From positions 62,001 through 126,000 of the forward strand of contig JAOZHO010000034.1 of assembly GCA_026014875.1 (NCBI GenBank): 64,000 nucleotides of DNA, written 5' to 3'. Positions 34,789 to 41,694 of the stretch are shown in pieces; position 1 is the stretch's first letter, and the number at the start of each line of letters is the position of its first letter. The DNA comes from Candidatus Bathyarchaeota archaeon. GTDB taxonomy: Archaea; Thermoproteota; Bathyarchaeia; TCS64. A program made the position numbers and the translations under genes. Below the pieces are notes generated by a model. It was not told the origin of the DNA. It did no database searches and saw only the letters and a list, made by a program, of their open reading frames with translations.

Positions 34789-34897
34789 CGTAAACGCGAA
34801 ATAAATCACATGGATAATCCAAAGTATTTTTTGTAATTTTTTAATGAAACCTATGTAGTTATTAGGGCATTCATGATATGTTTAGGGAATACAGACT

Positions 34898-36568
34898 TTG
34901 CCGCTTCATGGACAGCTTCAGGCGATATATAACATCCTTCTAGTCGTAACCGTAATCAATCTCGCCACGAGACGCCTCCGGCTCCCCTCATCCCTCGCGC
35001 TCATACTTGCGGGCGTCATGTCTACGGTTTTGACCTCATTCAGCCTCCCTATTCTGAGCCCCGAGATATTCATGTCCCTTCTTCTTCCTCCTATCTTATT
35101 CCAGGAGACTCTTCACCTGGATATTGACGGCTTCATAGATGAATCAAAGCCCGTTTTCGGATTTGCGATATTTGGAACCCTCTTGATGATCGCCGCTGTA
35201 AGCCTCTTTCTAAATATGGTCCTCGGGTTCAGCCTCTTGGAGGCGTTCCTCCTCGGCATCATCATCGCCCCCACGGATCCAGTGGCGGTAATTAACGTGT
35301 TCCAAGATATAGGTGTGGTCAAGAGGTTTCAACTAATTGTCTGCGGTGAATCCCTCTTCAACGACGGTATAGCCATCGCACTCTACTCAATAGTCGCGAG
35401 CATCATCACCCTCGGCACAATCACAACGACCAGTGTGGTGAAGATCACAGCCATGGCCATACTCGGAGGCGTCCTTCTTGGGATTCTTTTCAGCTACGCC
35501 GCCCACATCTTGTTCTGTTGGACCGACGATAAGTTCACGGAGGTCCTCATCTCCTTCCTCGTCGCCTTCGGCGTCTTCTGGATCTCCGAGACGATAGGGG
35601 CGAGTGGCGTGATAGCCACGGTCACGACAGGACTTATCATCAATTACAGGACCCATGCCTTCGGGGGAATAGGGAAGGACTCCTTCGAGATGCTCGAGGC
35701 CATATGGGAGTTCGTCGGCTTCGCAGCTTCGAGTATCGCATTCATATTCATCGGAGCGAATCTGAATATCTCCGTTCTCTTCGCCAACGTCTATCCCACA
35801 ATATACCTCTTCGCCTTCATCATGATCTCAAGGCACATAATGGTCTACGTGGTGGGGAACCTAATCGAGAGACTGGGAAGCAAGAAGATCCCGGGGAATT
35901 GGATGCCGGGATTGTCCTGGTCAGGTCTACGAGGGGCCGTCTCTGTGGTGCTCGCTCTAGGCGTTAGCGGCTTGGGCCTCCCCCACGCAGATGATATCAT
36001 GGCGCTAACATTCGGAGTGGTCTTGGCAAGCAATGTAATCCAGGGGCTATCGATCTCCAAGGTGCTCACACACTTAGGACTGACCCCTCAAAGCGGAGAC
36101 CTCCCAGGTGAAGCAAAGGAAGTCGCCCCACAAAGGATGAACGCCGAGTACTCTTCTCAAGGATTCAAAACAGAGGGGAGCATCGGGGAGAAGATATTAT
36201 TCTCTGCGCCGGAGTACTTTGTGTTCGAGACGAGGATTGGCACGTGGATCCTACTGCGGCTCCAACATGCGCTGGAGTTCATCAACATGTACGCGGTGAC
36301 CAAGATGCCCAAGGCCGAAGGGGGCATGCTTAGAAGGGGCTTCGCGTTCTCGACCGACTTGATCGTCTTCGGCCTTACGCGAATAACACAGGCTCGGCGG
36401 GACTATTACTGGGAGAGGGAAAAACAGTACGCGACGGATAGAAGCCGTCAACTGGACTCGCTGTATGAGATAAGGAAGCGCCAAGTGGACAGGATCATGA
36501 AATCCGGAGGCATCGACGGCTTACGAAGGCGCAAACCGAAAAAACCTAAACCCTCGGACACCGAATGA
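34898..36568 (+). CDS. CPA1-type cation/proton antiporter (NhaP-like)
   Basis: A 556-residue antiporter with 12 or more membrane segments in the first 400 residues. CPA1 motifs are LLLPPILFQETLHLD, GIIIAPTDPVAVINVF and VCGESLFNDGIAIALY. The amphipathic segment SGLRGAVSVVLALG lies near the end of the membrane part. A soluble tail of about 160 residues ends in a Lys/Pro-rich stretch. It should exchange Na+ or K+ for H+. The start is a TTG at 34898, since no in-frame ATG precedes the first segment. The tail may sense ligand or pH but has no recognised domain. Confidence 0.85.
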   Translation: MPLHGQLQAIYNILLVVTVINLATRRLRLPSSLALILAGVMSTVLTSFSLPILSPEIFMSLLLPPILFQETLHLDIDGFIDESKPVFGFAIFGTLLMIAAVSLFLNMVLGFSLLEAFLLGIIIAPTDPVAVINVFQDIGVVKRFQLIVCGESLFNDGIAIALYSIVASIITLGTITTTSVVKITAMAILGGVLLGILFSYAAHILFCWTDDKFTEVLISFLVAFGVFWISETIGASGVIATVTTGLIINYRTHAFGGIGKDSFEMLEAIWEFVGFAASSIAFIFIGANLNISVLFANVYPTIYLFAFIMISRHIMVYVVGNLIERLGSKKIPGNWMPGLSWSGLRGAVSVVLALGVSGLGLPHADDIMALTFGVVLASNVIQGLSISKVLTHLGLTPQSGDLPGEAKEVAPQRMNAEYSSQGFKTEGSIGEKILFSAPEYFVFETRIGTWILLRLQHALEFINMYAVTKMPKAEGGMLRRGFAFSTDLIVFGLTRITQARRDYYWEREKQYATDRSRQLDSLYEIRKRQVDRIMKSGGIDGLRRRKPKKPKPSDTE

Positions 36569-36580
36569 GTCACGCGTATC

Positions 36581-36736
36581 CTAGGTAGATTTCTGGTACT
36601 TCCTCCCCACTCCGTCGTAGATGGTGCACCCAATGTCCAGCCTGTAGGCTAGCTCAGCCAGCTCGGGCGTGATGTCCACGTAGCTGAACCCAAGGTGGTT
36701 GCACGGCCAGACCCCGATGAACTCCTCGTCAGGCAT
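36581..36736 (-). CDS. Small protein, 51 residues
   Basis: A short frame starting ATG at 36736 with GGAAGG seven bases upstream. It encodes an acidic start (MPDEEFIGVWPCNHLGFSYV), then a helix (DITPELAELAYRLDIGCTIY), ending VGRKYQKST. Codon choice looks like the neighbouring genes and the two Cys are well placed. I do not recognise the family. It converges on the antiporter with about 12 bases between stops. It could be an intact small gene or the remainder of a larger one. Confidence 0.5.
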   Translation of the reverse strand: MPDEEFIGVWPCNHLGFSYVDITPELAELAYRLDIGCTIYDGVGRKYQKST

Positions 36737-36938
36737 CGTTATCCTTCCTTATAGGATGGGCCACGACGGATTACACCGGTCGCGAGCGCAGAGGGCATCC
36801 TAGGTGATGATAACTATAATAGCCACGGGCCATAAATAGACCCACTTTAAGAATGGGTCAGATCCAGAGCGGCTACACAACTTATCCCTGAAGACCAAAA
36901 GGGGCATGCCGTCTGCAAACCACCCAGGGTGATATCCC
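36737..36938. other. Intergenic stretch before the IS110 remnant
   Basis: Nothing supportable is seen besides TATA-like ctataagg (minus strand, about 36750) that could serve the small gene at 36581-36736. Confidence 0.3.
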
Positions 36939-38278: not shown

Positions 38279-39559
38279 TCAAAGGAAATACAGGTAAATC
38301 GTGGATACAATCAGGTTCACCATCGTGACTCCGAAGCAGATAACGAAGAAGCGTCCTAGGGGTATCGGGTGTCCCTCTTGTTCTGCGACCCCGATGGCGA
38401 TGATGCTGCTGGGGGAACCTATCGGGGTCAGGCAGCCACCGAGATTAGCCCCTAGAACTAGCCCCCACCAGACTTTAGCCGAAGCTCCCTCTTGGATCCA
38501 TCGGCTCATAACCGGGGCCAATGTGGCTGTAAGGGGGATGTTGTCGACTACGCCCGAGGGCACTGCGGAGAGCCACATGACCGCCGTGGGCATATTCACG
38601 GGTAAATGATCCACGAAGTTCAACATCCAGTCCGAGAGCATATCGATCAGCCCATTCTTGTCGAGGCAGTTCACCAAGACGAAGAGGCCGGCGAGGAAGA
38701 TCACCGTGGACCAGTCGATGCCTCTCAGTGATTCCGTCGGGCCCTCCCCGGAGAACATGATCATCAGGAAGCCACCCGCCATCGCTACGAAAGCGGGGGT
38801 CAGGCCGATCTGATCGTATACCGCAAAGCCGATAATGGTGAAAACCATAATCAAGGCCGCTACAGCCATTCTCCAAACCTCACCCTCTTCGTCTAACTCC
38901 CTTACGGATATATTCACCCAGTCAGAGAATTCTAGGGCCCTCATCTCCTGCGTGATTCCTTTTTCGACCTCAGAACCGAAGACCCTGATAAATATGAGCA
39001 GGGTTACTACGAAGAGGATTATCCCGATGGGCGCGATGTTGACCAAGAAGGCGGAGAATGATATCCCACCCTCCACGGCGACGATTATGTTGGGTATGGA
39101 GCTCATCAGAAGCATCATGCCTCCGATGTTCACTATTATGGCCTGGAATATCAGAAACGTCTCGGGCTTTATCTTGAGGGACTTGGCTAGGGGTATGGTT
39201 ATCGTGGCCATGATGAGCATTCCTCCGATGTTCTCCAGAAAGATGGAAAGGACAAATGTTAGAACCATCATAATTATGGCGAAGGAGGTTATGCTCTTGG
39301 AGGCCTTGGTTATCTTCTTTGCGAATACGTTGAATATCCCCGATCTCTCCGCGCCCCTCACGAGTAACATCATGCCGACGATGACCCCTAGTATCTCGAT
39401 ATCGATGAAGTGAAGAACCTCTTCGGCACTCACGGCTCCTACAAAAACCATAGCCCCTGAGCCTAGGAGAGCGGCGTACATTCTGTGAATCCTTTCTGTC
39501 ACTATTAGGATTATAGTTAACAAGAAGATAATTACGGAGGCGGTTTGAATAGGATTCAT
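38279..39559 (-). CDS. ArsB/NhaD-type ion transporter (IT superfamily)
   Basis: A 426-residue membrane protein with about 11 predicted segments and an internal repeat. Features are IDIEILGVIVGMMLLVRGAERSGIF, ENIGGMLIMATITIPLAK, ANLGGCLTPIGSPSSIIAIG, and a polar loop around 200-225. The second NxGG plus TPIGSP motif is typical of NhaD, P-protein and arsenite permeases. It may exchange Na+ and H+ or export an anion; substrate not assignable. The ATG at 39559 is 23 bases after a small damaged frame on the same strand. Confidence 0.8.
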   Translation of the reverse strand: MNPIQTASVIIFLLTIILIVTERIHRMYAALLGSGAMVFVGAVSAEEVLHFIDIEILGVIVGMMLLVRGAERSGIFNVFAKKITKASKSITSFAIIMMVLTFVLSIFLENIGGMLIMATITIPLAKSLKIKPETFLIFQAIIVNIGGMMLLMSSIPNIIVAVEGGISFSAFLVNIAPIGIILFVVTLLIFIRVFGSEVEKGITQEMRALEFSDWVNISVRELDEEGEVWRMAVAALIMVFTIIGFAVYDQIGLTPAFVAMAGGFLMIMFSGEGPTESLRGIDWSTVIFLAGLFVLVNCLDKNGLIDMLSDWMLNFVDHLPVNMPTAVMWLSAVPSGVVDNIPLTATLAPVMSRWIQEGASAKVWWGLVLGANLGGCLTPIGSPSSIIAIGVAEQEGHPIPLGRFFVICFGVTMVNLIVSTIYLYFL

Positions 39560-39582
39560 GTATCGGCTTGCTCTTATGTCGT

Positions 39583-39798
39583 TTAATGCGGCTCTACTTT
39601 GATTTTACGGTACTCCGCCATCAGTTCATCCTGGGTATGCTTCCTCAATCTTAGATCATATTTTTTGCCATGCGCCTATCTCCCTCTCATCAAACCCAGA
39701 GGAGATGCTAGATACCTGGTCCCGTATCCCCACGAACTCTTTCTCAAGCGCCTCTTTACCCAAATTCTGATCTGTTTACCGATATCCATATCGACCAT
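39583..39798 (-). pseudogene. Small disrupted gene upstream of the transporter
   Basis: No single frame covers this stretch well, but joining three pieces gives a 71-residue protein: MVDMDIGKQIRIWV, then KEALEKEFVGIRDQVSSI through DEREIGAWQK, then KYDLRLRKHTQDELMAEYRK to the TAA at 39583-39585. The shifts fall at GGGTAAAG and at a run of six A, and cancel each other. Each piece has the mixed charge of a helical soluble protein. In the first frame alone a TAG interrupts it. It could be a pseudogene or a sequencing error in homopolymers. It lies 23 bases before the transporter start, so a shared operon is likely. Confidence 0.4.
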
Positions 39799-40171
39799 CG
39801 CCTAAATTCAATAGAATCATTCGCAAGCGTCACATGATTGTTAGCCTCTCACATTAATGTTATGGAGGGTGCATCACCGCGCGCGGCTATATGAAGGCGT
39901 GTTTATCCTTTACCTCTAACATCCACCCGTGAAAACTGTACAACCGCCTATCCCCCCACCATGAGACATTATGACTATACGCCTAGGCTCCTCCAATTGC
40001 GCGCGAGATCTCTTGTCGTGGTGTATCCGCCCATTCTACCTCAGCCATCCAATAGTAGACCAGATAGTTAGGCATCATCGGAAAATTTATCCAGGGGATA
40101 AAAATGGAGAAGGATTAAAACCGAATATTCCCCTAAAACACCCTATAAACTACCCAAGCCAAGAATTTTAT
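39799..40171. other. Intergenic stretch left of the tRNA-end repeat
   Basis: No supported gene. The sequence is AT-rich with frames that lack ribosome-binding sites or family resemblance. It may hold remains of the insert next to the tRNA gene. Confidence 0.25.
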
Positions 40172-40191
40172 ATGGTGGACTGGGAGGGATT
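40172..40191. repeat. 20-bp copy of the tRNA-Ala 3' end (candidate att site)
   Basis: atggtggactgggagggatt is identical to 40981-41000, which covers the CCA, discriminator base, 3' acceptor strand and part of the T-arm of tRNA-Ala on the minus strand. Such a partial tRNA copy is what tyrosine-integrase elements leave at their far end. Confidence 0.7.
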
Positions 40192-40249
40192 ACCCTAAAA
40201 TTTTAGGCAGAAATGATTTGTTTAATCTCTGGGCGGGGTACGAACCCTT

Positions 40250-40351
40250 CTAGAAATGGAAACGAAAGATATATTCTTCGACACATTTCATCTTACCATC
40301 TGAAAACCTGAGAAGTCTTCTTTCTCCAACCCTGTTCTCAAGGTTGTCCAT
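40250..40351 (-). pseudogene. Short coding remnant inside the tRNA insert
   Basis: A 33-residue frame (ATG 40351 to TAG 40250-40252): MDNLENRVGERRLLRFSDGK, then MKCVEEYIFRFHF. It is preceded in the same frame by LDYFYEL. The composition looks like a real protein fragment of the same AT-rich style as the DUF6884 gene 45 bases upstream on the same strand. The family is unknown. It is probably the end of a deleted gene. Confidence 0.3.
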
Positions 40352-40396
40352 GAGTTCATAGAAATAGTCGAGCTAAACAAATCTATCCAAAGTCTA

Positions 40397-40846
40397 TCAC
40401 GTGCAAGTGAATGGTTTGTTTTCTCTTAGGGCTTCCCTTACTGCGCGCGCAATCATTATCCCAGTGCAAGGAGTTATGACTTTTTGATCGGTGCTCTTGA
40501 AAGTTTCAATGACCAAGTTTGCGTAGGTTGTTCCTCCTAGGGCTACGATACAGGGATATTCAGAAAACATGTCCTTCGCCTGTTCCCTTAATTCTGATAA
40601 CGAGATAGGATTGGTTTTGGGATCATTAAAAGCAACGTGATAATCTTCAGGGATAACAAAGTCAGGTTCAATGAAACCATATTTCGGCGAGAGAATCACC
40701 CATTTATCAGAAAAGGTTTCAGCGTACTCTCGATTTACCTTGAAAGGCGGTCCTGTGTATACATTTTTAGCTAAAGTAGGTCTAGCATTTGGTATGTTTT
40801 CCCAGATTTTCCTTCTACCGCTAGGTACAACGACTAAGGATTTCAT
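40397..40846 (-). CDS. DUF6884 domain protein
   Basis: A 149-residue protein matching the DUF6884 (YaaA-like) pattern. It starts with VVVPSGRRKIWENIPNARP, then AKNVYTGPPFKVNREYAETFSDKWVILSPKYGFIEPDFVIPEDY, FNDPKTNPISLSELREQ and VALGGTTYANLVIETF. In most members the N-terminal motif is PCGKxK; here the Cys is Ser. The family occurs on mobile elements and near restriction or defence genes; its biochemical role is not established. It is the only intact gene of the AT-rich insert at tRNA-Ala. The ATG at 40846 fits the family start. Confidence 0.75.
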   Translation of the reverse strand: MKSLVVVPSGRRKIWENIPNARPTLAKNVYTGPPFKVNREYAETFSDKWVILSPKYGFIEPDFVIPEDYHVAFNDPKTNPISLSELREQAKDMFSEYPCIVALGGTTYANLVIETFKSTDQKVITPCTGIMIARAVREALRENKPFTCT

Positions 40847-40981
40847 GATTTGAGTAGTATAAGAATATACGTTAATATATTATTCGAAATTATCTGTGTG
40901 ACTCATTCGCCTGCGTTAATAAAGGCTCCCTTAATCCAGACCATGAAAGTTAGGGATAGAGGTCGATTAACCTGAGAATGA

Positions 40982-41058
40982 TGGTGGACTGGGAGGGATT
41001 TGAACCCCCGACCCCTGCCATGCCAGGGCAGTATTCTACCGAGCTAAACTACCAGCCC
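40982..41058 (-). tRNA. tRNA-Ala (GGC), CCA encoded
   Basis: The minus strand folds as a complete tRNA. Acceptor GGGCTGG pairs with CCAGTCC, including the G3-U70 pair that identifies tRNA-Ala. The D-arm contains TAGCTCGGTAGA, anticodon stem CTGCC/GGCAG encloses loop CTGGCAT with anticodon GGC, and the T-arm carries GGTTCAAATCC. Discriminator A73 and an encoded CCA (40982-40984) follow. No intron is seen. Its 3' end is duplicated at 40172-40191. Confidence 0.95.
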
Positions 41059-41214
41059 ACTTCACCAACACATCAAGCAAACTACCTAAAAACCTTCCCC
41101 CGGGACATCAAAAGAATATAATACGAGAACAAACCATCAACCCTCCCCCACATCTCCCCCGATTTCAAGAGAGTTTTTATCATCCCGCCAGATCATCTAG
41201 AACAGGGATACAAC

Positions 41215-41694
41215 ATGGACCGCGATGTAGCAATTTTGAAGAGATTCGCCGAGTACGCCTTCTCGAGCCTAGAGAGGACATGTGAAGGCCTCACCGAGAC
41301 GGAGGCGGACTGGAGACCCGTCGAGGAGGCCAACAACGCCCGCTGGATCCTCAACCACCTTGCAAGAATCGCGAACATTTCTCTCCCCCGGATCTTCATG
41401 GGGGACCCCAACTATACTCCCGAGGGATGGCCGGAAGACTATAGAGAACAGGCCTACGGCCTCGAGAAGCTCCTCACAGACATCCAGACAGGGAAAGAAG
41501 CCGCCCTCGAAAGCATGGGAGGCCTAAAATCCGCGGCTCTGGCCGAGGATATCTCCCTGTGGGGAGGAACCAAGAAGAGAGAGTTCGGGATCTTCGCCTA
41601 CCTCGGGGAGATCGTGACCCACAAGGGACAGATCGCAGCCCTGAGGGGCAACATCAAGCGCCGCCGAGAGAAGGACGCCAGCTTCCTAGCATAG
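41215..41694 (+). CDS. DinB-like four-helix protein
   Basis: A 159-residue protein with the DinB/YfiT layout of four helices and metal-ligand positions. The first helix is ILKRFAEYAFSSLERTCEGLTETEADWRP. His in ARWILNHLARIANI and His in GEIVTHKGQIAALRGNIKR match two of the usual three His ligands. Such proteins bind Zn or Ni and often act in thiol or detoxification transfer. A TATA-like gagtttttatc (about 41170-41180) precedes the ATG at 41215 with a short GGGAT leader. The substrate is unknown. Confidence 0.75.
   Translation: MDRDVAILKRFAEYAFSSLERTCEGLTETEADWRPVEEANNARWILNHLARIANISLPRIFMGDPNYTPEGWPEDYREQAYGLEKLLTDIQTGKEAALESMGGLKSAALAEDISLWGGTKKREFGIFAYLGEIVTHKGQIAALRGNIKRRREKDASFLA

What the first reader, a model, noticed from the sequence alone, without database searches (positions are those of the whole stretch)
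40172..41058. Minimal tRNA-bound insert carrying DUF6884, with no integrase
A 20-bp exact copy of the tRNA-Ala 3' end (T-arm to CCA) lies 809 bp from the intact gene. Between them is an AT-rich segment with one intact gene, DUF6884, and one fragment. This is the footprint of tRNA-targeted integration, but the element has no integrase. DUF6884 genes are frequent on mobile elements and their role is open.
Basis: partly seen in the sequence, partly recalled or inferred. Interest (0 to 1): 0.65.

Follow-up and report, generated by a model that had tools for sequence, protein, structure and literature searches.

The report
Decayed mobile-DNA scar at a tRNA gene
A 0.8-kb piece of DNA beside an archaeal alanine-tRNA gene is the worn-down remnant of a mobile element that inserts at tRNA gene ends; its one gene, a probable DNA-handling protein tied to virus defence, seems to have lost its active-site motifs, so this is a real but fairly ordinary genomic fossil.

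Summary
An exact 20-bp copy of the tRNA-Ala(GGC) 3' end (40172-40191) lies 809 bp from the gene's own copy (40981-41000) and encloses an AT-rich segment with DUF6884 and no integrase. The reading as a tRNA-targeted insertion is supported by relatives. (1) In two same-family genomes the sequence next to tRNA-Ala resembles the window just outside the distal repeat, as an empty site would. (2) A same-genus genome (G001) carries the same 720-bp DUF6884 module at 91% identity, ending at the same repeat core, at another location. Its dS is 0.076, against 1.2-2.0 for neighbouring genes of the same genome pair, so the module moved horizontally. (3) There it is physically joined to a broken tyrosine integrase that elsewhere in the same assembly starts at tRNA-Leu. 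The 'minimal element' idea fares less well. The insert looks like a two-part mosaic, with about 100 bp next to the tRNA shared with other chromosomal flanks. The DUF6884 gene has lost both family motifs (CxxxK to SxxxK, LSAxxG to LSPxxG) and shows dN/dS of about 1. Best reading: an integrase-less, deletion-shrunken remnant with probably dead cargo, a new example of a known kind.

The parts
40982..41058 (-). tRNA-Ala (GGC), intact target gene
   Evidence: ARAGORN, Rfam RF00005 62.4 bits
40981..41000 (.). tRNA-side copy of the 20-bp att core (3' end of tRNA-Ala plus 1 nt)
   Evidence: exact repeat
40172..40191 (.). distal copy of the att core (orphan tRNA-Ala 3' end)
   Evidence: exact repeat; same boundary in G001 L040:3226 with 2 mismatches
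40184..40238 (.). distal end arm of the element, also present in G001 (L040) and without DUF6884 in G002 C87 (L105 1578-1632, 87%)
40250..40396 (-). non-coding remnant downstream of DUF6884, broken frames, 93% identical to G001, no family match
40397..40846 (-). DUF6884 (PF21818) gene, 149 aa; open frame but CxxxK changed to SxxxK and LSAxxG changed to LSPxxG; dN/dS about 1 against the G001 copy
40847..40891 (.). upstream part of the module shared with G001; sequence similarity to G001 stops at 40891
40880..40981 (.). tRNA-proximal about 100 bp, not in G001's element; shared with the tRNA-Ala flank of G002 (L042) and with G000 C39 (L003); probably chromosomal flank or an older insert; putative deletion/recombination junction at 40880-40891
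40072..40171 (.). flank outside the distal repeat, similar to the sequence directly next to tRNA-Ala in G016 and G006 (empty-site evidence)

Best explanation
The segment 40172-40981 is the remnant of an archaeal integrative element that a tyrosine recombinase inserted at the 3' end of tRNA-Ala(GGC). Integration kept the tRNA intact and left a 20-bp copy of its 3' end at the far side (inferred from the repeat and the empty-site-like loci). DUF6884 sat at the end away from the tRNA. The integrase and small genes, which in G001 lie upstream of DUF6884, were then lost by deletion or recombination ending at about 40880-40891, so the remnant cannot excise by itself. The DUF6884 protein belongs to the YaaA-like DNA-binding fold and to the PDC-M57A defence candidate, so the cargo was most likely a DNA-processing defence gene. 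This copy has lost both family motifs and shows no sign of purifying selection, so it is probably no longer functional. Shown: repeat, module boundary, horizontal transfer, integrase linkage in G001, motif loss. Inferred: the order of events, the deletion, loss of function.
For: Exact repeat far above chance. The flank outside the distal repeat aligns with the sequence immediately next to tRNA-Ala in G016 (score 44, best of 500 shuffles 30) and G006 (37 against 34), with the repeat itself left out. The 720-bp module is 91% identical in G001 and starts at the same att core in a different context. dS is 0.076 for DUF6884, against 1.2-2.0 for three neighbouring genes of the same genome pair and 78-82% backbone identity. 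In G001 contig C20 the module lies beside the C-terminal part of a tyrosine integrase (PF00589), with an in-frame TGA after the R-H box and no catalytic Tyr region. Its N-terminal part starts at tRNA-Leu(CAA) on contig C1, with a 51-bp copy of the tRNA-Leu end on C20. Several of the nearest integrase relatives also lie by tRNAs. A second orphan tRNA-Ala(GGC) 3' half in G006 is joined to an integrase N-terminal domain, so tRNA-Ala-targeting integrases exist in this family. Motif loss is unique to the G000/G001 copies among 14 aligned (one distant member, L123, is also atypical at the first motif) and differs from 78 viral relatives.
Against: No single relative carries an integrase-bearing DUF6884 element at tRNA-Ala. 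In G001 the module lies in a tRNA-Leu context, and the tRNA-Leu element is inferred across two contigs that overlap by only 59 bp. The empty-site flank match rests on about 40-100 bp of AT-rich DNA in another genus. The same-genus genomes G001, G002 and G003 have other DNA at that spot. The 100 bp next to the tRNA also occurs away from any tRNA (G000 C39), so a single clean insertion is too simple. dN/dS rests on 32 differences, and an omega of 0.5 is not firmly excluded (P = 0.06).
Confidence: 0.72

Rival explanations
1. A genuine minimal non-autonomous element: a cassette of two end arms plus DUF6884, moved in trans by integrases encoded elsewhere in the genome, still mobile.
For: Same distal boundary in G000 and G001 and a third copy of the 55-bp arm in G002 without DUF6884. 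Low dS shows recent transfer. G000 encodes an integrase with an open frame at another tRNA, tRNA-Leu(TAG) on C24.
Against: The tRNA-proximal 100 bp is not shared with the G001 copy, so the two ends are not conserved as a unit. The cargo shows motif loss and dN/dS of about 1. Only one copy exists in the genome.
Confidence: 0.13
2. A patchwork made by homologous recombination and rearrangement at a tRNA hotspot: the flank X plus orphan tRNA end came with foreign DNA from a lineage related to G016, and the DUF6884 module was captured on the way. No integrase acted at this tRNA-Ala.
For: Window 34838-36782 is 88% identical to G016 while the backbone is about 70%. Each of G001, G002, G003 and the G006/G016 pair has different DNA at the tRNA-Ala end. 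The block next to tRNA-Ala in G002 is on C39 in G000 with its own copy of the 100 bp.
Against: The module ends exactly at the tRNA end core in two unrelated contexts (G000, G001), and a third arm copy in G002 begins within the core; random recombination would not place the border there.
Confidence: 0.13
3. Chance or vertical feature: the repeat is coincidental and the DUF6884 gene is an old resident of the locus.
For: None found.
Against: Repeat expectation 0.04 per window. DUF6884 found at the locus in no other genome of 61. dS 16-fold or more below neighbouring genes.
Confidence: 0.02

Closest known systems
tRNA-targeted integrative elements / genomic islands of archaea with tyrosine recombinases (general kind)
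   Same: 3' end of a tRNA duplicated as a direct repeat, intact tRNA on one side, empty-site-like loci in relatives, AT-rich foreign segment, integrase-bearing relative of the module.
   Different: No integrase left, only 0.8 kb, mosaic interior.
PADLOC candidate system PDC-M57 (PDC-M57A = DUF6884, PDC-M57B = GIY-YIG-like)
   Same: The window protein matches PDC-M57A at E 7.8e-10; its relatives in L051, L058 and L115 sit beside PDC-M57B proteins.
   Different: No PDC-M57B partner here, and both conserved motifs are altered.
YaaA (DUF328) of E. coli and B. subtilis YfjM (DUF6884)
   Same: The AlphaFold2 model (pLDDT 90) matches YaaA 5caj at Z 8.0 over 142 residues and AF0587 2q07 at Z 8.1. Pfam authors describe DUF6884 as distantly related to YaaA, with YfjM an interactor of DNA lesions (PMC11701544).
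   Different: The window copy lacks the Cys of CxxxK and the Ala of LSAxxG.

Membership tests
tRNA-targeted integrative element | Direct repeat of the tRNA 3' end bounding the insert, tRNA left intact | tested here: met
tRNA-targeted integrative element | Empty site in relatives, with the outer flank joined directly to the tRNA | tested here: met
   G016 and G006 flanks above all 500 shuffles; short match, other genus
tRNA-targeted integrative element | Cognate integrase encoded in the element | tested here: not met
   no integrase frame in 40172-40982; remnant in the G001 relative only. Hence filed as a remnant, not a working element
tRNA-targeted integrative element | Horizontal mobility | tested here: met
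   dS 0.076 against 1.2-2.0 for three neighbouring genes
tRNA-targeted integrative element | Precise excision between repeats | not testable with these tools
   needs reads
DUF6884 (PF21818) | Profile score above curated cut-off | tested here: met
   53.2 bits against 30
DUF6884 (PF21818) | Conserved CxxxK and LSAxxG motifs | tested here: not met
   SxxxK and LSPxxG in window and G001 only; the motifs are those named in PMC11701544
PDC-M57 defence candidate | DUF6884 (M57A) next to GIY-YIG-like M57B | tested here: not met
   M57A match, but no partner gene inside the insert and none in the adjacent genes examined
Archaeal integrase whose gene starts in the tRNA end (SSV/pNOB8-like) | att core overlapping the 5' part of int | tested here: inconclusive
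   seen as fragments in G001 C1 and G006, absent in the window

The most novel reading that the evidence does not exclude
DUF6884 with altered active-site motifs is a trans-mobilised cassette cargo that hops between tRNA-Ala and tRNA-Leu elements and is under diversifying rather than relaxed selection: between G000 and G001 all changes in codons 64-93 are amino-acid changes. It would be a repurposed, non-catalytic DNA-binding member, for example a decoy or regulator in a defence/counter-defence contest.
Probability: 0.08. Interest if true: 0.55.

Novelty: new member of a known kind. Interest (0 to 1): 0.27.

Why it matters
It gives a relative-supported case of an archaeal tRNA-targeted element reduced to an integrase-less scar. 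It shows that a DUF6884 defence-candidate gene travels on such elements in this archaeal family. It also shows that tRNA-Ala(GGC) is a rearrangement hotspot in the lineage, and warns that an open reading frame on such a scar need not be a working gene.

Tried and rejected
Looked for an integrase fragment inside the insert: none. Tested whether the downstream fragment (40250-40396) is a GIY-YIG/PDC-M57B remnant: no Pfam match. Rfam search of 39400-41300: only the tRNA. No close relative of the protein in viral contigs with the single-sequence query; the alignment query found 78 distant ones. Plasmid and phage collections: only distant Listeria and Caulobacter hits. No solved structure related by sequence. 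Searched for a second att core in G002 and G003: none identical, only 1-mismatch copies that look like tRNA ends. BLAST E-values for the empty-site flank include the 20-bp repeat and are inflated, so the flank was retested without it.

Full report
Observation. The window lies in an assembly of 51 contigs (G000, contig C45) whose gene content looks archaeal. tRNA-Ala(GGC) is at 40982-41058 on the minus strand. A 20-bp exact repeat of its 3' end lies at 40172-40191 and 40981-41000, 809 bp apart, and is the only such pair in the window even with 3 mismatches allowed (0.04 expected). The longest match of the tRNA to 5 kb downstream is 20, against at most 14 in shuffles. The enclosed DNA has 39.6% GC against 55.2% for the window and one gene, DUF6884. 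All of the stated observation is confirmed, with two small corrections: the repeat covers the 3' T-stem and acceptor strands plus CCA rather than the whole T arm, and the 'fragment' has no recognisable family.

Empty site. In G016 and G006 (same family, other genus) the sequence directly next to the tRNA-Ala 3' end aligns with the window outside the distal repeat. Because BLAST scores there include the repeat itself, I retested the outer flank alone: it beats all 500 shuffles for both genomes (44 against at most 30; 37 against at most 34) and is at background level for G001, G002, G003, G008 and G012. This is what an insertion between tRNA-Ala and its old flank predicts, though the match is short. 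In a class-wide profile search PF21818 passes its cut-off in 10 of 257 genomes and is patchy. With the window protein only 5 of 61 genomes match (G000 itself included), and none but G000 has it at this locus.

Mobility. In G001 (same genus) a 720-bp stretch, from 40172 to 40891 in window terms, is 91% identical and begins at the same att core (2 mismatches), but on a contig with an unrelated kinase pseudogene beyond the core. The backbone is 78-82% identical. dS is 0.076 for DUF6884 and 1.2-2.0 for three neighbouring genes. The module has therefore moved between the lineages after they split. A third copy of the 55-bp distal arm, starting within the att core, lies in G002 contig C87 without DUF6884.

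The lost integrase. In G001 contig C20, upstream of DUF6884, lies the C-terminal half of a tyrosine integrase (PF00589, E 2.7e-6), with a TGA after the R-H box and no catalytic tyrosine region. Contig C1 ends inside the N-terminal half of an integrase that begins right at tRNA-Leu(CAA); the two contigs overlap by 59 bp at 97%. C20 also carries a 51-bp copy of the tRNA-Leu end. The simplest reading is a tRNA-Leu-targeted element of about 3 kb that contains int, two small frames and DUF6884; its continuity across the contigs is inferred. Several of the nearest integrase relatives in other genomes also lie next to tRNA genes. In G006 an orphan tRNA-Ala(GGC) 3' half is joined to an integrase N-terminal domain, so integrases using this tRNA exist in the family.

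Mosaic structure. The window matches G001 up to 40891, while 40880-40981 matches the tRNA-Ala flank of G002 and a place on G000's own contig C39 next to the same membrane-protein gene. The 809-bp insert therefore has two parts with a junction at about 40880-40891. This suits an internal deletion or recombination in a once larger insert, but the history of the 100-bp part is unclear. tRNA-Ala ends in G001, G002, G003 and the G006/G016 pair each adjoin different DNA, which marks a hotspot.

The cargo. The AlphaFold2 model (pLDDT 90) resembles E. coli YaaA (Z 8.0 over 142 residues) and AF0587 (Z 8.1). Z of 8 is modest, but it agrees with the Pfam authors' statement that DUF6884 is a YaaA relative with CxxxK and LSAxxG motifs and a putative DNA-lesion role (PMC11701544). 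The protein matches PADLOC candidate PDC-M57A. Relatives stand next to GIY-YIG proteins (PDC-M57B in L051, L058, L115; GIY-YIG domains in L045, L054, L059), next to AGOG-type DNA glycosylases (L052, L114), or are fused to DpdA (L117). The family theme is handling of damaged or modified DNA, often in defence islands. In the window and G001 copies the Cys of CxxxK is Ser and the Ala of LSAxxG is Pro; 77 of 78 viral relatives keep the Cys and 78 of 78 the Ala (the viral search pattern admitted only A or P at that site). dN/dS between the two copies is 0.99, and the non-coding stretch downstream is as conserved as the gene (93.2% against 92.9%). An omega of 0.23 is rejected (P = 1e-4), an omega of 0.5 is not (P = 0.06). 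The gene is thus probably relaxed and non-functional.

Verdict. It is a decayed, integrase-less remnant of a tRNA-targeted integrative element with probably dead defence-type cargo: a new member of a known kind, of modest interest.

Noticed in passing
window 34838-36782: A Na+/H+ antiporter-like gene region is 88% identical to G016 (other genus), where the backbone is near 70%: likely recent horizontal transfer close to the insert.
   Followed up: no
L105 1625-3430 (G002 contig C87): A gene for an AAA ATPase/FtsH-like protein is flanked by 37-bp direct repeats (92%), 1769 bp apart, directly beside the copy of the element's distal arm: perhaps another small element.
   Followed up: partly
L135 about 1471-1520 and 1136-1501 (G006): Orphan 3' half of tRNA-Ala(GGC) joined to a truncated integrase N-terminal domain, 280 kb from the real gene.
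   Followed up: partly
L112 1477-1923 (G000 contig C24): A second, motif-intact DUF6884 in the same genome, next to a divergently oriented 328-aa gene similar to the AGOG-like partner seen in L114, and a NucS-like protein; PDC-M57A E 5.9e-39.
   Followed up: partly
L117 214-1923 (G179): DpdA fused to DUF6884 in one protein, linking DUF6884 to 7-deazaguanine DNA modification; L118 shows a similar arrangement by eye.
   Followed up: no
window 40568-40657 (codons 64-93 of DUF6884): Between the G000 and G001 copies all changes in this stretch are non-synonymous, several with two or three base changes per codon: chance, recombination or diversifying selection.
   Followed up: no
L102 5003-5757 (G000 contig C28): A broken integrase of the same family as the G001 one, whose frame starts in a tRNA-end-like sequence.
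   Followed up: no
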